Of a stretch of 35,780 nucleotides of DNA, positions 14,032-35,213 are shown one piece after another. Numbering within the stretch: position 1 is the first letter of the stretch; every line of letters begins with the position of its first letter. Both the position numbers and the translations under genes were made by a program. The notes under the pieces are model-generated. The model was not told where the DNA came from. It did not search any database and was given only the letters and a program-made list of their open reading frames with translations. Source of the stretch: Euzebyales bacterium (GTDB lineage: Bacteria > Actinomycetota > Nitriliruptoria > Euzebyales > JAHELV01); contig DATHVN010000207.1 of NCBI GenBank assembly GCA_035461305.1, forward strand, positions 1 to 35,780. Direction: 5' to 3'.

Positions 14032-15597
14032 CTAGCACTTGCCCTGGTCGTCGGGGTCGGCGTTGATGTACTCCGGGCGGGGCGGAACCTTCTTCTGTCG
14101 TGCCGGCTCGGACTGCTCGACACCGGCGACGTCGATCAGGTCGGGGTCGACATCGCGGTTGAGGATGACCGACACCGCGTCGACCGACTCGTCGAGCTCG
14201 AGGACCGCGTCGGGGAAGGCCGCGACCTTCAGTGACTGGGCCTCCGTGAGCCTGCCGGGCGGGTAGGCGATGACCACACCGTCGGGCTCGGGGCGGACGG
14301 TGTCGGTCGCGGTCCTGATCGCGACGCCCGCGTTGGCCAGCACGTCGGCGGTGTTCGTCGCGAGCCCCGTGACGTTCGACGCGTTGAGCATTGACACCGG
14401 CGCCAGCTCGTCGGCGGGGATCTTCGGCTCCGGGTCGGGCGAAGCCGACTCGGTCGGCTCGTCCGCCGACGCCTCCCCCAGGTATTGCGCGAGCGTGCCC
14501 TGCTTGAAGGCGCGCAGCAGGTCCTCGGTGCCGCTCCTGACCGGGATCTCGTAGAAGACGCCGGTCGAGCTGTCGGTGACAGTTGGGATCGTCCCGAGCG
14601 TGATGTCGTCGGACTCGACGCTGCGCAAGGTCAGCGCGAACTCCCGCATCGTGCCGACGCCCAGGCTGTCGTCGACCGTCAGCAGCTCGCCGATGCTGTC
14701 GACCAGCTGGAAGAGCCGGACCGGGTTGGCGAGCACGCTCAAGCTCGTGGCGCGGTCCGCGAGCTCCTTGAGGAAGCGCTGCTGGCGCGCGATGCGGCCG
14801 AAGTCGCTGTCGACGCGCGTGCGCACGAAGCCGAGGGCGTTGCGGCCATCGAGCTCGACGCAGCCCTTGGGCAGGTCGACGTGCGCCTTGGGGTCTGTCA
14901 TCGGCTTCTCGAGGTACATCGGCACGCCGCCGACGGCGTCGACGATCTTGACGAAGCCCTCGAAGTTGACCTGGACGTAGTGGTCGATCCGGATGCCCGC
15001 GACGTCGCGGACGGTCTCGACCAGGCAGTCCGCGCCCCCGTTGTACCAGGCGGCGTTGATGCGCTGGCGCGAGCCGTCGCAGATCGTCACGAGCAGGTCG
15101 CGGGGAAAGTTGATCCCGGTGATCTTGTTGCCCTGTGGGTCGATGCGCAGGACCATGATCGTGTCGGTGCGGTGTCCCTCGCGGTCACCGGTGCCGAGGT
15201 CCCGGAACTGCTTGCTCAGGTCGTCGCCGGAGTCGTCGCCGACCACGAGCACCGTCTGGGCCTTACTGAGGCCCTGCGGCTCGGACGCGCCCTCGGACAC
15301 CGGCGGTTGACCGAGGGTGTCCAGGGCGATCCTGGTGCCCATCAGCTCGTGGCGCCCCTGCCAGACGAGCGCGCCGACGGCGAGCGCGACGCCGACCGCG
15401 AAGCACAGGACGACGGTGACCACGCGCCGCAGGATCGCCCCGATGCGACGTCGACGAGGCGGTGGGCCGGCCGCAGGCAGCCACCCACCGTCACGTCGCA
15501 TGTCAAAGAAGTCGGACAGCCCTTCGCCTTCCGTCCGGGGACCGTCCATGGGAGGTCCGGCCGCCCCCGGGCCCGCCCGACCGGACGGGATCGTCAC
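14032..15597 (-). CDS. LCP (LytR-CpsA-Psr) family glycopolymer ligase
   Basis: This membrane-anchored enzyme of 521 residues should attach lipid-linked glycopolymers (teichoic-acid-like or arabinogalactan-like) to peptidoglycan on the outer face of the membrane. A short cytoplasmic arginine-rich region precedes one transmembrane helix (VVTVVLCFAVGVALAVGALV). The LCP domain follows, with RTDTIMVLRIDP, NFPRDLLV, DHYVQVNFEGFVKIVDAVGG and the Arg-rich FVRTRVDSDFGRIARQQRFL. An Asp/Glu/Pro linker leads to a LytR_C domain (SMLNASNVTGLA...). GTG 15597 is chosen because TAGCTT lies 7 bases upstream, a leaderless promoter; ATG 15549 is an alternative start without a clear ribosome site. It is divergent from the TIGR03089 gene. 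Confidence 0.9.
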   Translation of the reverse strand: MTIPSGRAGPGAAGPPMDGPRTEGEGLSDFFDMRRDGGWLPAAGPPPRRRRIGAILRRVVTVVLCFAVGVALAVGALVWQGRHELMGTRIALDTLGQPPVSEGASEPQGLSKAQTVLVVGDDSGDDLSKQFRDLGTGDREGHRTDTIMVLRIDPQGNKITGINFPRDLLVTICDGSRQRINAAWYNGGADCLVETVRDVAGIRIDHYVQVNFEGFVKIVDAVGGVPMYLEKPMTDPKAHVDLPKGCVELDGRNALGFVRTRVDSDFGRIARQQRFLKELADRATSLSVLANPVRLFQLVDSIGELLTVDDSLGVGTMREFALTLRSVESDDITLGTIPTVTDSSTGVFYEIPVRSGTEDLLRAFKQGTLAQYLGEASADEPTESASPDPEPKIPADELAPVSMLNASNVTGLATNTADVLANAGVAIRTATDTVRPEPDGVVIAYPPGRLTEAQSLKVAAFPDAVLELDESVDAVSVILNRDVDPDLIDVAGVEQSEPARQKKVPPRPEYINADPDDQGKC

Positions 15598-15641: not shown

Positions 15642-16445
15642 ATGGACCATTCACCCACCACCACGCTGGCCGACGTCATCCGAACAGAGACCCGCGAGCG
15701 CCAGGACCGTCCGTTGTTGACCGTCTACGACGACACGGTCGGCGCGCGCACGGAGCTGTCCTACGCGACGGCCGACAACTGGGCGGCCAAATCGGCCAAC
15801 CTGCTGGTCGAGGGGCTCGACCTTGGCGCCGGCACCATCGTCGCGCTGGACCTCGACGGGCACTGGACCGCGGGTGTATTGACCCTGGCCTGCTGGAAGG
15901 CGGGCATCGCCGTCACCGGCCATGATGCCGCCACGACCGCCGACGTCGTGTGCTGTCACACGTCGCGGCTGGCGGCGCATCCGTCCGGACCGCTGCTCGT
16001 CGTGGGCGACGGACTGCGCGCCGAGCCGTTGGAGCCCATCGCGCCACGCGGCGACATCGTTCTGCTCGGCGAGGACGTCCACGCGTTCGCCGACGACCAC
16101 GACGGCCCGGACGTGCGAGCCACGACGCCGGCGCTGGTGACCGCGACGGCGACGCTTGATCACGCCGCGGTGCTCGAGCGCGCGGCGGCGTGGCGGGACG
16201 CTGTGGGCGGCGGCACGCGCGTCGGGCTGGCGGGCGCGCTCGACGGCGTCGTAGGCCAGCTGCTGCTGGCCGGCGTCGTGACGGCCGGCGGCAGTGTGGT
16301 CGCCGATCGCCCGGTCCCCGACAGGCCGCGCTGGCAACGGTGGGCGACCGAGCGGGTCACTGTTGCGGCCGGCGCACCCGCGGCGCTGGCCGACGCCCCG
16401 GCCGGGGTGGCCACGATCGCGCTCGAGGCCATGGACGGTGTCTGA
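15642..16445 (+). CDS. TIGR03089 family protein (AMP-binding-like)
   Basis: This protein of 267 residues matches the actinobacterial TIGR03089 family, which resembles the N-terminal part of acyl-CoA synthetases/AMP-binding enzymes but lacks the C-terminal domain. Recognisable parts are the opening LADVIRTETRERQDRPLLTVYDD, the WAAKSANLLVEGLDLGAG segment and the GTIVALDLDGHWTAGVLTLACWKAGI helix-strand. The adenylation P-loop and catalytic lysine are not evident, so it is probably not an active ligase. The ribosome site AAGGGGAG lies just before ATG 15642. Members are often found next to LCP-family genes, as here. Function unknown. Confidence 0.85.
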   Translation: MDHSPTTTLADVIRTETRERQDRPLLTVYDDTVGARTELSYATADNWAAKSANLLVEGLDLGAGTIVALDLDGHWTAGVLTLACWKAGIAVTGHDAATTADVVCCHTSRLAAHPSGPLLVVGDGLRAEPLEPIAPRGDIVLLGEDVHAFADDHDGPDVRATTPALVTATATLDHAAVLERAAAWRDAVGGGTRVGLAGALDGVVGQLLLAGVVTAGGSVVADRPVPDRPRWQRWATERVTVAAGAPAALADAPAGVATIALEAMDGV

Positions 16446-27976: not shown

Positions 27977-29539
27977 TTACAGAGTGTTATTGCGGATCGA
28001 CGACGCCCCGCTGATCCCCGGCATCGTGAGAAGCTCGAGGGCCACGCCGTACGACACCAGGTGCGCCCCGTCCCGGGGGTCGCGGCCCGTCAGCGTGGCG
28101 ACACGGTCCAAACGGTACGCCAGGGTGTGGCGGTGGATGCGCAGCTCCGCCGCCGCCGGCCCGGGACGGCACCCGTGCGCGAGGTAGGCACGCAGGCTCG
28201 CGATCAGTGCCGGCGAGCCGTCGTCCCGATCCAGCAGCGGACCGAGCATCCGGCTGACGAAGGCATCCGATGCCTCCGTTGCGCCCGTCCCGGCCAGGAA
28301 GCCCGACACACCCAGCGTGTCGACGGTGACCTCGATGCCCTCGCCGGCCTGCACCACGGCGGCGGCGGCCTCGCGCAGCGCGGTCGCCAGGCCGCCGATG
28401 TCGCGCTGCACGTTGCTGCGTCCCACCCGCAGCGGGCCGAGCACACGTGCGCGCGCCGCATCCATGACGTCCCGGCCCACCCGTGCCGCGGCAGGCTGCA
28501 CGACGAGGTGCACCATGTCGTCGATCATGCCCGCGGCCACGGAGTCGCCACCGACTGCATCCTCGACCACACGGCACACGGTCGCCGTCGGCGTGCCCGG
28601 CGGAGCAGCCACAGCCAGCACGTGGTACGGCGCCCCCGGATCGAGGCCGAGCCCCGCGAGGCGATCGGCGAGCTGGTTGGTGCCCGCCCGCCCGGTGCGC
28701 GCGTCATCGAGCATCGCGCCGACCGTCGCGCGCCGCTGCGCTCTGGCCGACACACCCCGCGACAGCGCGACCGCGGCCGCCGAGACCGCCTGCTCGAGCA
28801 GCAACATCTGGCTGTCGTCGAGCTCGACCCGCGACACGACCGCGAGCACGGCCTCGATCTCGTCGGCGGCCCGCACCGGCGCAGCGGTCACGATCCGGTC
28901 GCCCAGCATGAACCGCACCCTCGCCCGTGGACGCGGCGGCAGCACCGCCCACAGCCGGCCGGGGTCGACGGCGCCGTCGGCGACCCCGTGCCGTGCGAGC
29001 ACGTGGCCGAACGCGTCGAACAACGCCACGTCGACGCCGGCGATCGCCCGGGCAGTGACCGCCAACACCTCGTCGATCCCGCCACCCGACGTGACGGCGG
29101 CAAGCATCCGGCGGTGCAGGTCCAGGGCCCGGCGCAGGCCGAGGTCATGGGCCTCGAACACGCGCCGAGACACGTACCGGGTCACGGCGATGAACGGCAC
29201 CTCGTAGGGCACCGTGAACAGGGGGAGCCCACGACGGTCCGCCTCGGCGAGCATCGCCGGCGGTACCGCGTCCAGCCAGATGCCGACACCGAAGCCGACG
29301 GCGGGGCACCCGACACGGTCGAGGCCTGCGATCAGGTCCCGCTGGAGATCAGCGTCGTCCTTGACGGCCAGCCCGGTGGTGAGCAGCAGCTCGCCACCCT
29401 CCAGCCATGGCGTCGGATCGGGGGTCTCGCTGATGTGCGCCCAGCGGATCGGGTCGGTGCGCCCGACGCCGGCGGCGCCGGCCACGAGCTCGAGCCCGAG
29501 ATCCGCGTCGGCCAGCAGCTGACGCACCCCGATGCTCAC
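27977..29539 (-). CDS. PucR-family transcriptional regulator
   Basis: This 520-residue regulator has the N-terminal PucR domain (about 5-120, with WLEGGELLLTTGLA and LPLFTVPYEVPF), a central degenerate nucleotidyl-cyclase-like domain (about 280-400), and a C-terminal helix-turn-helix of the CdaR/PucR type (AYLAHGCRPGPAAAELRIHRHTLAYRLDRV). It is divergent from an aminobutyraldehyde dehydrogenase gene; in Streptomyces a PucR-like protein (EpuRI) represses polyamine catabolism genes, so a similar role is likely. GTG 29539 has no clear ribosome site, but an 11-codon leader frame from a leaderless promoter ends in a GTGA overlap with it. Confidence 0.88.
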   Translation of the reverse strand: MSIGVRQLLADADLGLELVAGAAGVGRTDPIRWAHISETPDPTPWLEGGELLLTTGLAVKDDADLQRDLIAGLDRVGCPAVGFGVGIWLDAVPPAMLAEADRRGLPLFTVPYEVPFIAVTRYVSRRVFEAHDLGLRRALDLHRRMLAAVTSGGGIDEVLAVTARAIAGVDVALFDAFGHVLARHGVADGAVDPGRLWAVLPPRPRARVRFMLGDRIVTAAPVRAADEIEAVLAVVSRVELDDSQMLLLEQAVSAAAVALSRGVSARAQRRATVGAMLDDARTGRAGTNQLADRLAGLGLDPGAPYHVLAVAAPPGTPTATVCRVVEDAVGGDSVAAGMIDDMVHLVVQPAAARVGRDVMDAARARVLGPLRVGRSNVQRDIGGLATALREAAAAVVQAGEGIEVTVDTLGVSGFLAGTGATEASDAFVSRMLGPLLDRDDGSPALIASLRAYLAHGCRPGPAAAELRIHRHTLAYRLDRVATLTGRDPRDGAHLVSYGVALELLTMPGISGASSIRNNTL

Positions 29540-29571
29540 GGGACGAGCCGGAACACCCGACTGTGCGCCAT
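29536..29571 (-). CDS. possible 11-residue leader peptide before the PucR gene
   Basis: ATG 29571 lies 7 bases after a TATGAT -10 box, so the transcript should begin at this ATG. The 11-codon frame ends with TGA (29538-29536) inside the GTG of the regulator gene (GTGA). It could supply ribosomes by coupling. No similarity is recognised. Confidence 0.4.
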   Translation of the reverse strand: MAHSRVFRLVP

Positions 29572-29776: not shown

Positions 29777-31213
29777 GTGGCCGACCGGACCGTCCAGAAC
29801 TTCATCGATGGCGAACTGCGGCCGATCAGCGACGGCAGGATGGCCCCGCTGACCGACCCCGCGACCGGGACCGAGTTCGCCCAGGCACCCATCTCGGGCC
29901 CCGCCGACATCGACGCGGCGTGCAGGGCCGCCGCCCGTGCGTTCGAGACCTGGCGGCGCTTCACACCCGCTGAGCGCAGCCTCGCGCTGCTGCGCATCGC
30001 CGATGCGTTCGAGGAGCACGGCGAGGAGCTGATCCGGGCCGAGTGCGACAACACCGGCAAGCCGTACCAGCTCACGCTCGACGAGGAGCTGCCACCAGCC
30101 TGCGACCAGATCCGCTTCTTCGCGGGAGCCGCGCGGGTGCTCGAGGGCCGGGCGGCCGCGGAGTACATGGCCGGGCACACGTCGATGGTCCGCCGCGAGC
30201 CGGTGGGCGTCTGCGCGCAGGTCACGCCGTGGAACTATCCGCTGATGATGGCGGTCTGGAAGTTCGCCCCCGCGATCGCCGCCGGCAACACCGTCGTGCT
30301 CAAGCCGTCCGACACCACCCCGGTCAGCACGGTGATGATGGCCGAGATCATGGCCGAGTTTCTGCCCCCCGGCGTGTTCAACGTGGTCTGCGGCGACCGC
30401 GACACGGGGCGTGCCCTCGTGGCCCACGACATCCCCGACATGGTGTCCGTGACCGGCAGCGTCCGGGCCGGCCGGCAGGTCGCCGAGGCGGCAGCCGCCG
30501 ACCTCAAGCGCGTGCACCTGGAGCTGGGCGGCAAGGCCCCCGTCATCGTGTTCGACGACGCCGACCTCGAGGGCGCCGCCGAGATGATCGCCGGCGCCGG
30601 GTACTTCAACGCCGGGCAGGACTGCACCGCCGCCACCCGCGTGCTCGCGGGGCCGGGCATCCACGACGACTTCGTGTCCGCGCTCGCCGACCAGGCGAAG
30701 GCGACCACCACGGGTGGGCCCTACGACGAGGGCGTCGACTACGGCCCGCTCAACAACGCCGACCAGCTCGCGCGCGTCTCCGGCTTCTTCGAGCGCCGTC
30801 CCGACCACGCACAGATCGTCACGGGCGGCAACCGCGCAGGTGTCGGCGACGGGTTCTTCTGGCAGCCCACCGTGGTCGCCGACCTGCGCCAGGACGACGA
30901 GATGATCCAGACCGAGATCTTCGGGCCGGTGATCACCGTCCAGCGCTTCGACGACGAGGAGAAGGCGCTGGCCTGGGGCAACGACGTGGAGTACGGCCTC
31001 GCCGCCAGCGTCTGGACGAAGGACCACGGCCGCGCGATGCGCATGGCGGCCGGCCTCGACTTCGGCTGCGTGTGGATCAACACCCATATCCCGATCGTCG
31101 CCGAGATGCCTCACGGCGGGTTCAAGCACACCGGCCACGGCAAGGACCTGTCGATGTACGGGTTTGAGGAGTACACACGGATCAAGCACGTAATGAGCAA
31201 CATCGAGGTGTGA
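29777..31213 (+). CDS. gamma-aminobutyraldehyde dehydrogenase
   Basis: This NAD(P)+-dependent aldehyde dehydrogenase of 478 residues should oxidise 4-aminobutyraldehyde or related aminoaldehydes to GABA-type amino acids. The catalytic set is complete: Asn153 in PWNYP, Glu249 in LELGGK and Cys283 in GQDCTAATR. The N-terminus [24 protein letters not shown] and the late [25 protein letters not shown] resemble PatD-type enzymes. GTG 29777 has AAAGGAG 6 bases upstream. It is divergent from the PucR-type regulator and heads an operon with the aminotransferases and alanine dehydrogenase. Betaine-aldehyde dehydrogenase activity is a less likely alternative. Confidence 0.9.
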
Positions 31214-31235
31214 ACGGGATGACTGAGGCCTTGCG

Positions 31236-31381
31236 CAGCGACAGGTCACTTGGAGACCTCGACCAGCGACAGCGACAGGTCACGTGGAGACCTCGAGCAG
31301 CGACAGCGACAGGTCACGTGGAGACCTCGAGCAGCGACAGCGACAGGTCCCTCGAGCAGCGACCGCGATAGGTCACGTGGA
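31236..31381 (+). repeat. 34-bp tandem repeat array ending at the aminotransferase ATG
   Basis: Five adjoining copies: a variant first copy (31236-31263), two identical 34-bp copies (31264-31297, 31298-31331), a 25-bp copy lacking 9 central bases (31332-31356) and a last diverged copy (31357-31381) that runs directly into ATG 31382. The unit begins CAGCGACAGCGACAGGTCAC and continues GTGGAGACCTCGAG. Each contains AGGT placed like a Shine-Dalgarno and, in full copies, the dyad AGGTC-N7-GACCT. A 50-codon frame from ATG 31219 crosses the array, but the repeat length is not a multiple of 3, so it is not a peptide repeat. Confidence 0.9.
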
Positions 31382-32788
31382 ATGACGGCACACAACACCC
31401 TGGCCGACGGCCACCTCTGGCTGCACTTCACCCGCACGCACGACTGGATGGGCCCCGAGCCGTCCGTCCCGGTGCTCGACCGCGGCGAGGGCTGCTATGT
31501 CTGGGATGTCGCCGGCCGGCGCTACCTCGACGGGTTGTCGGCGCTGTTCTGCGTGCAGGTCGGCTACGGGCGGTCCGAAATGGTCGAGGCGGCGGCGACG
31601 CAGATGGCCCGGCTGCCGTTCGCGACCAACTGGGCGACCGCGCACCAGCCGGCGATCGACCTCGCCGCCCAGCTCGCAGAGCGCTTCCCGGGCGACCTGA
31701 ACCACGCGTTCTTCGTAAACTCCGGCTCGGAAGCGGTCGAGTCGGCGATCAAGCTCGCCCGCCAGTACCACAGCGCCCGAGGCGAGCACCAGCGGCAGAA
31801 GATCATCAGCCGGGTCTACGCCTACCACGGCACCACGCTCGGAGCGTTGGGCGTCACCGGGCTCGAGGCGCTGTCCGACCCATTCCAGCCGCTGGTCCCG
31901 GGCCACATCCACGTGCCCAACACCAACGCGTACCGACCGCAGGTCGAGGACCCCGCCGGCGCGATCGAGGAGGCGATCGTCGACGCCGGGCCCGAGACCG
32001 TGTCGGCGGTGTTCCTCGAACCGGTCCAGAACGCCGGCGGCTGTTTCGTGCCGCCCGCGGGCTACTTCCAGCGCGTGCGGGAGATCTGCGACCGGCACGG
32101 GGTGCTGCTGGTCTCCGACGAGGTCATCTGTGCGTTCGGCCGGCTCGGCAGCTGGACCGGCGCCGAGAGGTACGAGTACCTGCCCGACATCATCACGTTC
32201 GCCAAGGGCGTCACGTCGGCCTACGCCCCGCTGGGCGGCATGGTGTTCCGCTCCGAGCTGGCCCGCGCGCTCAACAAGGAGCCGACCGATATGTTCCTGC
32301 ACGGGTCGACGTGGGGCGGCCATCCGGTCGCGTGCGCCGTCGCGTCGGCGAACATCGGTGTGTTCGAGTCCGACGACGTGCTCGGCAACGTGCAGCGCAA
32401 CGAGCAGTGGTTCAGCGACCAGCTCCACGAGCTGCAGGCGCGTCACGACATCGTGGGCGACGTCCGCGGCACCGGCTACTTCTGGGCACTGGAGCTGGTC
32501 AAGGACCGGGACCGCAAGATCGGCTTCGACGCCGGCGAGACCGAGGAGCTGCTGCGCGGCTTCCTGTCACGCCGCCTGCTGGAGCTCGGCCTGATCTGCC
32601 GCGCGGACGACCGCGACGAGCCGGTGATCCAGATCTCGCCGCCGCTGGTGGCCGACCGGGTCGTGCTCGGCGAGCTGGTCGGCACGCTCGACACGGTGCT
32701 CGGCGAGGCACGAGCGCGGCTCGAGCCCGGGCGAACCGCGCCGGCCCCCGACCGGGCACCCGGCGGACCTGGCACGACCAGTCCCTGA
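31382..32788 (+). CDS. class III aminotransferase (putrescine/omega-amino acid type)
   Basis: This PLP enzyme of 468 residues belongs to the class III (subgroup II) aminotransferases that take omega-amino groups from polyamines or beta-amino acids, usually with pyruvate as acceptor. PLP motifs: NSGSEAVESAIKLAR (113-127), YHGTTLGALGVTG (149-161), SDEVICAFGR (245-254, Asp246) and TFAKGVTSAY with Lys275 as the Schiff-base lysine. The start at 31382 coincides with the end of a tandem repeat that supplies the AGGT; a longer open frame only reads through the repeat. The C-terminal Pro/Gly-rich tail is unusual. It follows the aminobutyraldehyde dehydrogenase gene and precedes alanine dehydrogenase. 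Confidence 0.9.
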   Translation: MTAHNTLADGHLWLHFTRTHDWMGPEPSVPVLDRGEGCYVWDVAGRRYLDGLSALFCVQVGYGRSEMVEAAATQMARLPFATNWATAHQPAIDLAAQLAERFPGDLNHAFFVNSGSEAVESAIKLARQYHSARGEHQRQKIISRVYAYHGTTLGALGVTGLEALSDPFQPLVPGHIHVPNTNAYRPQVEDPAGAIEEAIVDAGPETVSAVFLEPVQNAGGCFVPPAGYFQRVREICDRHGVLLVSDEVICAFGRLGSWTGAERYEYLPDIITFAKGVTSAYAPLGGMVFRSELARALNKEPTDMFLHGSTWGGHPVACAVASANIGVFESDDVLGNVQRNEQWFSDQLHELQARHDIVGDVRGTGYFWALELVKDRDRKIGFDAGETEELLRGFLSRRLLELGLICRADDRDEPVIQISPPLVADRVVLGELVGTLDTVLGEARARLEPGRTAPAPDRAPGGPGTTSP

Positions 32789-32816: not shown

Positions 32817-33872
32817 ATGCTGATCGGCCTTCCCACCGAGATCAAGGACCGCGAGCGCCGCGTGGCGCTCGATCCGAACGCCGTCGCCGCTGCGGTCAAG
32901 GCCGGTCACCCCGTGGTCGTGCAGGCCGGAGCCGGTGTGGGAGCGGGCTTCGACGACACCGAGTACGAGAAGGCCGGTGCCCAGATCGTCGAGGGCGCGG
33001 ACGATGCCTGGGCCGCCGACCTGGTCGTCAAGGTCAAGGAGCCACAGCCCAGCGAGTTCGCGTACTTCCGCGACGATCTGACGCTGTTCACCTACCTGCA
33101 CCTGGCGGCCGAGCCCGATCTGGCGCACGCCCTGGCGTCCGCCGGCGTCGCCGCCTACGCGTACGAGACCCTGACCGAAAAGGGCAAGCTGCCGCTGCTG
33201 GCACCGATGAGCGAGATCGCCGGGCGGACCGCACCGATCGCAGGCGCCACGTACCTGGCCGCCCACCTTGGCGGCTCCGGTGTGCTGATCGGTGGCGCGG
33301 CCGGCGTGCCACAGGCGCGGGTGGTCGTGGTCGGGCTCGGCGTCGCCGGTGGGCTCGCCGCGCGTGGCGCGAGGGGCCTCGACGCGGTCGTGATCGGCGT
33401 CGACGTCGACCTCGCAAGGCTCGGCGAGGCCGCCCACGACGGCGACGTGACCACAACGGTCGCGTCCAACGAGCGCGCGGTCGGCGAGGTCGTCCACGAC
33501 GCGGACATGGTCATCGGTGCGGCGCTGGTCCCCGGTGCCCGGGCACCGGTCGTGGTCACCGAGGAGCACGTCGCGTCGATGCGACCGGGATCGGTCATCG
33601 TGGACCTCGCGATCGACCAGGGCGGGTGCATCGAGACCGGGCGCCCGACCACGCTGTCGGACCCCATCTACGTCGCGCACGAGGTCGTGCACTACTGCGT
33701 GACGAACGTGCCCGGTCAGTACCCGCGCACCGCGAGCCGCGCGCTGTCGGCCGCCGTGACGCCGCGCCTGCTGGCGCTGCTCGACGACCCCGAGTCCCCC
33801 AGGCTCACCGGTGCGCTCAACGTCCACCGCGGCGAGATCATCCACCCGGCCGTGGCGGAGGCGCTCGCATGA
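32817..33872 (+). CDS. ald: alanine dehydrogenase
   Basis: This 351-residue enzyme interconverts L-alanine and pyruvate plus ammonia with NAD+. The N-terminal MLIGLPTEIKDRERRVALDP carries the conserved Arg15. LVVKVKEP with the catalytic Lys (about 74) and YLHLA with His95 match alanine dehydrogenase. The NAD-binding loop is VVGLGVAGGLAARGA (172-186). The length is slightly below the usual 370. Between two transaminase genes its likely job is to turn alanine back into pyruvate, keeping the amino acceptor available. A transhydrogenase alpha subunit was considered, but the active-site set and lack of a beta-subunit gene argue against it. ATG 32817 is preceded by AGGAG. Confidence 0.92.
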   Translation: MLIGLPTEIKDRERRVALDPNAVAAAVKAGHPVVVQAGAGVGAGFDDTEYEKAGAQIVEGADDAWAADLVVKVKEPQPSEFAYFRDDLTLFTYLHLAAEPDLAHALASAGVAAYAYETLTEKGKLPLLAPMSEIAGRTAPIAGATYLAAHLGGSGVLIGGAAGVPQARVVVVGLGVAGGLAARGARGLDAVVIGVDVDLARLGEAAHDGDVTTTVASNERAVGEVVHDADMVIGAALVPGARAPVVVTEEHVASMRPGSVIVDLAIDQGGCIETGRPTTLSDPIYVAHEVVHYCVTNVPGQYPRTASRALSAAVTPRLLALLDDPESPRLTGALNVHRGEIIHPAVAEALA

Positions 33873-33893
33873 GGCCCCGGCGCGGCACCGTCC

Positions 33894-33963
33894 TGACCTC
33901 AGACAGCGTCAGCGACAGGTCACATCCATGACCTCAGACAGCGTCAGCGACAGGTCGCATCAA
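33894..33963 (+). repeat. 35-bp tandem duplication ending at the second aminotransferase ATG
   Basis: Two 35-bp copies (33894-33928 and 33929-33963) differ at a few bases near their ends. The unit contains TGACCTCAGACAGCGTCAGC followed by GACAGGTCAC or GACAGGTCGC. Each copy ends with the A of an ATG followed by AC: ATG 33928 and the real start ATG 33963. The core CAGCGACAGGTC is shared with the array at 31236-31381. Confidence 0.88.
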
Positions 33964-33966
33964 TGA
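33928..33966 (+). CDS. possible 12-residue leader peptide created by the duplication
   Basis: ATG 33928, at the end of the first repeat copy and with its own AGGT, opens a 12-codon frame whose TGA (33964-33966) overlaps the aminotransferase ATG 33963. Ribosomes starting at the upstream copy would terminate on the real start. It may be coupling or simply a by-product of the duplication. Confidence 0.35.
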   Translation: MTSDSVSDRSHQ

Positions 33967-35213
33967 CGGCGACTCCGGCGTTCCTGCATCCCTTCGCGCG
34001 GCCCGCGGCCGGCGTCGACGAGTTCCTCACGATCACGCGCGGCGAGGGCGCCACGCTGTGGGACGACCATGGCAACGACTACGTCGACGCCATGGCGGGG
34101 CTGTGGTACTGCAACGTGGGCTACGGACGGGACGAGATCGCCGAGGCGGTCGCCGGTCGGCTGCGGGACCTGGGCGCGTACCACGCGTTCGAGCGCTTCA
34201 CGCCGCCGGTCGCCGACGCGCTGGCCGACCGCATCAGCGGGCTGGCGCCCGAGCCGGGCTCGCGGGTGTTCTTCACCAGCAGCGGTTCGGAGGCGGTGGA
34301 CTCGGCCATGAAGATCGCGCGGCTGACCCACGCCCTGGCTGGCGAGCCGCGACGCACGGTGATCGTAAGTCGCCGGCCGAGCTACCACGGTGTCACCTAC
34401 GGTGGGGTCACGGCGACGGGGCTCCCGGCCAACCAGGAGGGGTTCGGGCCGTTGCTGCCCGACGTCGTCCAGGTCGACAAGGACGACCTCGACGCGCTTC
34501 GGGCCCTGTTCGTGGCCCAGGGCGATCGCGTCGCCGCCGTCATCGCCGAACCCGTGATCGGTGCCCCCGGCGTCTACCCGCCCGCATCGGGCTACCTCGA
34601 GAGCATCCGCGGTCTGTGCGACGAGCACGGCGCGCTGCTCATCTGCGACGAGGTCATCTGTGGGTTCGGACGGCTGGGCACGTGGTGGGGGTCCCAGCAC
34701 TACGGCGTCCGCCCCGACATGACGACCTTCGCCAAGGCCGTAACGTCGGGCTACCAACCGCTGGGTGGGGTCGTGATCGCGCCGTCGGTGGCCGACGTGC
34801 TCGCCAAGGACCCTCAGACCGTGCTGCGGCACGGCCACACCTACAGCGGCCACCCCGCCGCGTGCGCCGCGGCGATGGCCGCGCTCACGATCACAGAGCG
34901 CGAGGATCTGTTGTCTCGGGCGGTGATGGTCGGTGAGCGGCTGGGGGCGGGCCTGCGTGGCCTGCTCGACGCAGGACTCGTGGCCGAGGTCCGGGGCGCC
35001 GGCGCCGTGTTCGGCGTCGGCCTTCATCCACACACCGCTGCGTTCGATGTGCGCGAAGCACTGCTCGCCGAGGGCGTCATCGTGCGTCCGATCGGCACGT
35101 CGACCCTGGCGTTGTGCCCGCCGCTCGTCATCACCGACGCCCAGATCGACGACTGCGTCGCCGCCCTGGTGCGGGTGCTCGACGCGCTCGGCGGGGCGGC
35201 TGGCCCGTCATAG
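33963..35213 (+). CDS. class III aminotransferase (second copy in cluster)
   Basis: This PLP enzyme of 416 residues is in the same class as the first aminotransferase but clearly diverged. Motifs: SSGSEAVDSAMKIAR (106-120), YHGVTYGGVTATG (141-153), CDEVICGFGRLG (228-239, Asp229) and TFAKAVTSGYQPLGG with Lys258 bound to PLP. LWYCNVGYGRDEIAEA is typical of omega-amino acid:pyruvate transaminases. It may act on GABA or beta-alanine made by the dehydrogenase, whereas the other copy acts on the diamine, but this division is inference. The start sits exactly at the end of a 35-bp duplication. Confidence 0.9.
   Translation: MTATPAFLHPFARPAAGVDEFLTITRGEGATLWDDHGNDYVDAMAGLWYCNVGYGRDEIAEAVAGRLRDLGAYHAFERFTPPVADALADRISGLAPEPGSRVFFTSSGSEAVDSAMKIARLTHALAGEPRRTVIVSRRPSYHGVTYGGVTATGLPANQEGFGPLLPDVVQVDKDDLDALRALFVAQGDRVAAVIAEPVIGAPGVYPPASGYLESIRGLCDEHGALLICDEVICGFGRLGTWWGSQHYGVRPDMTTFAKAVTSGYQPLGGVVIAPSVADVLAKDPQTVLRHGHTYSGHPAACAAAMAALTITEREDLLSRAVMVGERLGAGLRGLLDAGLVAEVRGAGAVFGVGLHPHTAAFDVREALLAEGVIVRPIGTSTLALCPPLVITDAQIDDCVAALVRVLDALGGAAGPS

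What the first reader, a model, noticed from the sequence alone, without database searches (positions are those of the whole stretch)
31236..31381. Tandem repeats that duplicate a translation-initiation region before an aminotransferase
Five adjoining copies of a 34-bp unit end exactly at the ATG. Each copy has AGGT spaced like a Shine-Dalgarno, and full copies contain the dyad AGGTC-N7-GACCT around CACGTG. Identical neighbouring copies imply recent duplication, and the fourth copy already has a 9-base deletion, so copy number probably varies. Copy number could tune expression by changing ribosome loading, regulator binding or spacing. I know of no described element of this form, but I could not search.
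Basis: partly seen in the sequence, partly recalled or inferred. Interest (0 to 1): 0.6.

Follow-up and report, generated by a model that had tools for sequence, protein, structure and literature searches.

The report
Repeats that insert at gene starts
The repeats before this aminotransferase belong to an apparently undescribed family of ~35-base elements (at least 70 copies in this genome) that sit exactly at the start codons of genes, bring their own start codon, and are built so that translation can pass through them into the gene, much like the MIRU repeats of tuberculosis bacteria.

Summary
The array is real: five AGGTC motifs (spacing 34/34/34/25 nt) end 7 nt before the aminotransferase ATG at 31382. 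It is not a local oddity but one site of a dispersed family of 33-36-nt units: 77 matches in about 47 places in this genome, 34-84 in each of three genus mates, patchy in the order (Nitriliruptorales), virtually absent elsewhere in the phylum. A second array lies in the window (33894-33967) before another aminotransferase.

Intact units carry their own start codon (ATGACCTC...), pairing arms (GACCT...AGGTC, covarying in at least six complementary versions) and an AGG 6-7 nt before the next start. 69 of 72 arrays point the same way as the downstream gene. In the unit's own frame 30 arrays end in an exact -4 (ATGA) overlap with the gene start and 23 run in frame into the gene (8 and 7 of 69 in the other frames). 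Orthologous starts in sister species are empty, hold remnants, or differ in copy number.

Best explanation: a MIRU-like element that spreads into start codons and survives because translational coupling or in-frame fusion keeps the gene expressed. Coupling, expression effects and the mobilising enzyme are inferred, not shown.

The parts
31236..31381 (+). Tandem array (site 1): five units ending at the aminotransferase start
31220..31254 (+). Unit 1, degenerate (no GACCT arm; AGGTC at 31243)
31255..31288 (+). Unit 2, complete GACCT...AGGTC, 34 nt
31289..31322 (+). Unit 3, complete, 34 nt
31323..31349 (+). Unit 4, core only; the following 9 nt (ACGTGGAGA) are deleted
31350..31381 (+). Unit 5; its AGGTC (31370-31374) is the Shine-Dalgarno-like site 7 nt before the ATG at 31382
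31219..31371 (+). 50-codon upstream ORF through the array, from ATGA 5 nt after the aldehyde dehydrogenase stop to a TAG 10 nt before the aminotransferase ATG
29777..31213 (+). Aldehyde dehydrogenase (PF00171), upstream gene
31382..32788 (+). Class-III aminotransferase 1 (PF00202; NF005102), the gene behind the array
32817..33872 (+). Alanine dehydrogenase (PF05222/PF01262); its stop overlaps the ATGA at 33869
33894..33967 (+). Second array (site 2): two 35-nt units of the same family
33869..33931 (+). Mini-ORF A (20 codons), -4 overlap with the alanine dehydrogenase stop and with mini-ORF B
   Evidence: frame read directly from the sequence
33928..33966 (+). Mini-ORF B (12 codons, MTSDSVSDRSHQ), -4 overlap with aminotransferase 2
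33963..35213 (+). Class-III aminotransferase 2 (PF00202)

Best explanation
The array is one copy-number-expanded insertion of a dispersed, apparently mobile 33-36-nt element that targets, or survives only at, start codons. Each intact unit begins with a start codon (ATGACCTC...), so it captures the host gene's native Shine-Dalgarno or its stop-start overlap, and ends with AGG plus 6-7 nt before the next start. A ribosome that translates the unit therefore either runs in frame into the gene (33- or 36-nt units) or terminates at an ATGA that overlaps the next start by 4 nt and re-initiates (35-nt units). Added copies repeat the same step, so copy number can change without cutting the gene off. 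The unit's arms pair (GACCT/AGGTC) and would hold the AGG closed until translation of the unit opens them. Shown: sequence family, position, orientation, frame bias, covariation, empty sites, copy-number differences between species. Inferred: mobility, actual coupling, hairpin opening. At the window's own array the units have lost their ATGs, and coupling would run through a 50-codon leader ORF that stops 10 nt before the gene.
For: Family size: 77 matches at E<=1e-3 in the own genome, 84/84/34 in genus mates. Orientation 69 same strand vs 3 opposite (p=3e-17). Frame: 30 exact -4 overlaps + 23 in-frame fusions of 69 arrays, against 8 and 7 in the two shifted frames. For last units with NTG and a start within 12 nt: spacing 35 in 23, 33/36 in 7, 34 in 1, with 35 reached both as 27-nt core + 6 and 26-nt core + 7. 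First unit start overlaps the upstream gene's stop by exactly -4 in 22 of 35 cases; SD-like motif upstream in 21 of 45 vs 4.0 expected from shifted positions. Empty orthologous sites with conserved flanks: lepA, secD, ABC ATPase, aminotransferase 2. Arm covariation GACCT/AGGTC 142, GTCCT/AGGAC 20, GGCCT/AGGCC 11, TGCCT/AGGCA 11, GACAT/ATGTC 5, GCCCT/AGGGC 4. Precedent: MIRUs insert at start codons with -4 coupling (PMC12548453).
Against: No transcript, ribosome-profiling or reporter data. Only AGG(T) of the unit matches the anti-Shine-Dalgarno, so unaided initiation would be weak. The predicted stem is weak in RNA (mean pairing probability 0.36; whole-leader folding no better than shuffled), so the covariation could serve DNA-level mobility instead. 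About a quarter of arrays (16 of 69) show neither coupling mode. The window's site-1 units have no start codon. No mobilising enzyme was identified; RAYT transposases are absent.
Confidence: 0.75

Rival explanations
1. Adaptive expression tuning: arrays are kept because changing copy number adjusts the translation of the downstream gene (contingency-locus-like), and are not merely tolerated.
For: Copy number differs between sister species at every gene compared; a MIRU-VNTR array before M. tuberculosis fpg was reported to correlate with expression level (PMC2734929).
Against: No expression data. Downstream genes are functionally mixed, many of them core genes. Unit lengths of 35 and 36 keep the frame relation constant, so copy change may be neutral.
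Confidence: 0.3
2. Binding sites of a DNA-binding regulator: AGGTC-N7-GACCT or GACCT-N17-AGGTC dyads form a regulon before many genes.
For: Perfect inverted repeats in most units.
Against: Strict reading-frame relation to the gene and -4 overlaps, placement downstream of native SDs and inside coding N-termini, arms that change but together, unrelated target genes.
Confidence: 0.05
3. REP/BIME-type palindromes mobilised by RAYT (Y1 tyrosine) transposases.
For: 20-40 nt size, high copy number, paired arms and a GTAG near the 3' arm, as in GTAG-type REPs (PMC3733652).
Against: No PF01797 protein in any of the four genus genomes while the same search rings in five control genomes. REPs lie mainly downstream of coding regions and often in inverted pairs; these lie at starts, head-to-tail. 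GTAG here straddles loop and stem and is not an unpaired end tag.
Confidence: 0.07
4. Peptide-coding repeats: the 12-residue unit (MTSxSxSGRSRD) is a functional N-terminal tag of the fused proteins.
For: 23 of 69 arrays are in frame with the gene.
Against: In intact units the most variable site is a second codon position and variation is not concentrated at third positions; 30 arrays are not fused but overlap by -4; orthologues lack the extension.
Confidence: 0.05
5. Purely local replication slippage at one gene, with no dispersed family.
For: Units 3 and 4 of the array have identical cores, so local duplication does happen.
Against: The same unit occurs at about 47 places in this genome and in its relatives.
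Confidence: 0.01

Closest known systems
MIRU (mycobacterial interspersed repetitive units), Mycobacterium
   Same: Short repeats, dispersed and tandem, in intercistronic positions; insert at start codons so that an ORF in the repeat is coupled to the gene with -4 spacing (PMC12548453); copy number polymorphic (PMC2734929); an orthologous gene lacks the leader in another species (PMC4128351).
   Different: Units are 33-36 nt, not 40-100; a different actinobacterial class; two modes (-4 overlap and in-frame fusion); covarying pentanucleotide arms; no direct sequence comparison with MIRUs was made.
TAACTGA direct repeats of Beggiatoaceae, Cyanobacteria and Bacteroidetes (PMC4679880)
   Same: Direct repeats in many arrays (169 sets in one genome), mostly a few nucleotides upstream of start codons of functionally mixed genes.
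   Different: Heptamers with no described start codon of their own, arms or coupling geometry; [quoted passage not shown]
REP/BIME palindromes with RAYT transposases (PMC3733652)
   Same: Size, high copy number, paired arms, apparent mobility.
   Different: No RAYT found; located at starts, head-to-tail; no unpaired GTAG or CGTC end tag.
Rickettsia palindromic elements (general knowledge; not examined here)
   Same: Small palindromic repeats inserted in frame into protein genes.
   Different: Those are much longer (roughly 100-150 nt) and lie inside genes rather than at start codons.

Membership tests
MIRU | Short element repeated at many chromosomal sites, single or in tandem | tested here: met
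MIRU | Insertion at start codons with a repeat ORF coupled to the gene by -4 overlap | tested here: met
   Geometry only: 30 of 69 arrays exact -4, a further 23 fused in frame; empty sites. Coupling itself not testable here
MIRU | Copy number varies between genomes | tested here: met
   Between species only; strains of one species not available
MIRU | Unit length 40-100 bp (PMC2734929) | tested here: not met
   Periods 33-36 nt
MIRU | Sequence homology to mycobacterial MIRUs | not tested
   No MIRU sequence was at hand; the model found nothing outside the genus at E<=1e-6 among 296 phylum genomes, which are unnamed
REP/RAYT | RAYT (Y1_Tnp, PF01797) in the genome | tested here: not met
   0 of 4 genomes, controls positive
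REP/RAYT | Palindrome with unpaired GTAG or CGTC tag at one end | tested here: not met
   5-bp arms around a 16-17-nt loop; GTAG straddles loop and arm
Known RNA element (Rfam) | Match above the gathering score in the window | tested here: not met
   no match

The most novel reading that the evidence does not exclude
A self-spreading relay cistron: a mobile cassette consisting of a start codon, a hairpin that hides the next ribosome site, and an ATGA stop-start, which threads itself into operons genome-wide and, by copy number, sets how many ribosomes reach each gene; it is moved by an enzyme or RNA-based route not yet known.
Probability: 0.25. Interest if true: 0.82.

Novelty: new variant of a known kind. 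Interest (0 to 1): 0.62.

Why it matters
Start-codon-inserting, translationally coupled repeats are documented in mycobacteria (MIRUs). An element that follows the same logic in another actinobacterial class, found before unrelated core genes including gyrA, lepA, secD and secF, suggests that repeats can exploit stop-start coupling as a safe landing place more than once. The frame rule (35 or 36 nt, hardly ever 34) is a genomic signature that mini-ORFs in leaders are translated, and sister species supply natural presence/absence pairs for direct tests. It also warns that annotated N-termini in these genomes may be repeat insertions.

Tried and rejected
The core pattern CAGCGACAGGTC alone is uninformative: most of its other exact matches lie in coding sequence on either strand and look like chance. 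RAYT transposases: none. Rfam: no match. The exact-pattern scan of named genomes gave one hit, a Nitriliruptorales MAG; this is the only basis for the order name. RNA folding of the leaders is no more stable than shuffles. The regulator-dyad idea was rejected because arms vary jointly while the frame relation stays fixed. Papers: no hit describing repeats in Nitriliruptoria. One gene first taken for typA (notebook, label) is lepA.

Full report
Observation. Tandem Repeats Finder reports 31236-31349 with period 34 and 97% match. Five AGGTC motifs at 31243, 31277, 31311, 31345 and 31370 end 7 nt before the ATG at 31382 of a class-III aminotransferase. The 9-base deletion after the fourth core is real. 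Three copies have both arms; the first has lost its GACCT arm. Only the last AGGT is at Shine-Dalgarno distance from an ATG.

It is a family, not a local oddity. BLAST of the array against its own genome found related units at other places, nearly all at gene starts. Tandem Repeats Finder had already listed a second array in the window, 33894-33967, directly before a second aminotransferase. A profile built from 14 units gave 77 matches at E<=1e-3 in the own genome, in about 47 places, and 84, 84 and 34 in three genus mates; only the best candidates are scored, so these are lower bounds. In the order, 15 of 30 genomes have at least one match at E<=1e-3, many of these few and weak; two genomes of one other genus have 30 and 54, and half have none. 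In the class only one weak match lies outside the order. At E<=1e-6 none of 296 genomes sampled from the phylum has a match outside the genus. The one named relative is a Nitriliruptorales MAG.

Anatomy of a unit. The consensus is (A)TGACCTCARGYAGCGNCAGCGGTAGGTCACRTGAC followed by the next start codon, with periods of 33 (11), 34 (10), 35 (12) and 36 (43) nt. The triplet before ACCTC is most often ATG or another NTG. The two pentanucleotide arms covary: with a search pattern that fixes only the loop, the frequent combinations are all fully complementary (GACCT/AGGTC 142, GTCCT/AGGAC 20, GGCCT/AGGCC 11, TGCCT/AGGCA 11, GACAT/ATGTC 5, GCCCT/AGGGC 4), while mismatched combinations are mostly background singletons. 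Copies within one array are not independent, but the alternative arms recur in different arrays and genomes and in single-copy units. The pairing is therefore within the unit, not between AGGTC and the next unit's GACCT. As RNA the stem is weak (mean pairing probability 0.36, against 0.002 when one arm is shuffled), and whole leaders fold no better than shuffles. In intact units the most variable site is a second codon position, so the peptide is not what is conserved.

Position and frame. Of 72 arrays with a clear downstream coding call, 69 point the same way as the gene and 3 do not, while random points give about equal numbers. Reading the last unit from its own start-codon position, 30 arrays stop in an exact -4 overlap with the gene start and 23 run in frame into the gene; in the other two frames the sums are 8 and 7 of 69. 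When the unit starts with NTG and the gene start is close, the distance is 35 nt in 23 cases, 33 or 36 in 7, and 34 once; 35 is reached both as a 27-nt core with a 6-nt spacer and as a 26-nt core with a 7-nt spacer. At the other end, the first unit's start overlaps the stop of the upstream gene by exactly 4 nt in 22 of 35 cases with a same-strand neighbour, and an SD-like motif precedes it in 21 of 45 against 4.0 expected. Gene calling here is by codon usage, and arrays were picked by a pattern that requires near-canonical arms, so the percentages are approximate. A few CTG cases counted as -4 may only share the TGA stop.

Sister species show insertions. At the window's array the other genus members have 0, 0 and 1 units; in the last the single unit forms the protein's N-terminus. 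At the second site G002 is empty and has the alanine dehydrogenase stop overlapping the aminotransferase start (GTGA), whereas the window has a chain of three -4 overlaps: alanine dehydrogenase, a 20-codon ORF, a 12-codon ORF, aminotransferase 2. Of ten further genes chosen for having arrays, nine could be compared, and presence or copy number differed at all nine; selA had no orthologue displayed. The cleanest are lepA (G002 AAGGACCTCCGCGTACGC-ATGGTG against G000 AAGGACCCCGGCTACGC-ATGACCTC...array...ATGACA; labelled typA, identified as lepA) and secD (stop codon and short SD region kept, array between SD and ATG). The array thus sits between the native SD and the native start codon. With the window's two arrays that makes eleven genes, all differing.

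How it most likely works. The native SD or native stop-start overlap now serves the unit's start codon, and the unit's AGG, 6-7 nt before the next start, serves the gene. A ribosome either reads through in frame or stops at ATGA and re-initiates. Translation of the unit would also open its arms and expose the AGG. Copy number can then change with little penalty. Position, frame and covariation are shown; coupling, mobility and any effect on expression are inferred. The window's own array is a worn example: its units have lost their start codons, and the leader now holds a 50-codon ORF (31219-31371) that stops 10 nt before the gene.

Comparison. The closest known kind is the MIRU, described as apparently mobile and inserting at start codons with -4 coupling (PMC12548453), with variable copy number (PMC2734929) and an orthologue that lacks the leader (PMC4128351). 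The present element works like a MIRU as far as its geometry shows; it fails the MIRU length criterion, and sequence homology was not tested. Beggiatoaceae TAACTGA repeats (PMC4679880) share the position only. REP/RAYT elements are excluded as far as tested. The class's consensus anti-SD is reported as CCUCCUU (PMC10783764), so the unit's AGG(T) is a weak SD.

Caveats. The genomes compared are drafts in many contigs; several arrays abut runs of N in G001 and G002, so copy numbers may be collapsed or duplicated. Comparison is between species, not strains. Absence of a described family rests on a library of open-access papers only.

Noticed in passing
   Followed up: yes
L048 and L063 (own genome, contig C174 near 15056 and 16644): Neighbouring secD and secF each carry their own array of the family.
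   Followed up: partly
L105, L106, L118, L180: A subfamily with TGCCT/AGGCA arms, several copies beginning ATGAGTGCCTC; different arms recur as subfamilies within one genome.
   Followed up: partly
L077, L086, L170, L174, L191, L193: Runs of N next to arrays with a similar array on both sides, suggesting assembly breaks at repeats in G001 and G002.
   Followed up: no
window 27977-29560, minus strand: Translation resembling a PucR-type regulator (by eye only), facing away from the aldehyde dehydrogenase / aminotransferase cluster.
   Followed up: no
window 14773-14831 and 16178-16239: Two weak short tandem repeats (27 and 19 nt) unrelated to this family.
   Followed up: no
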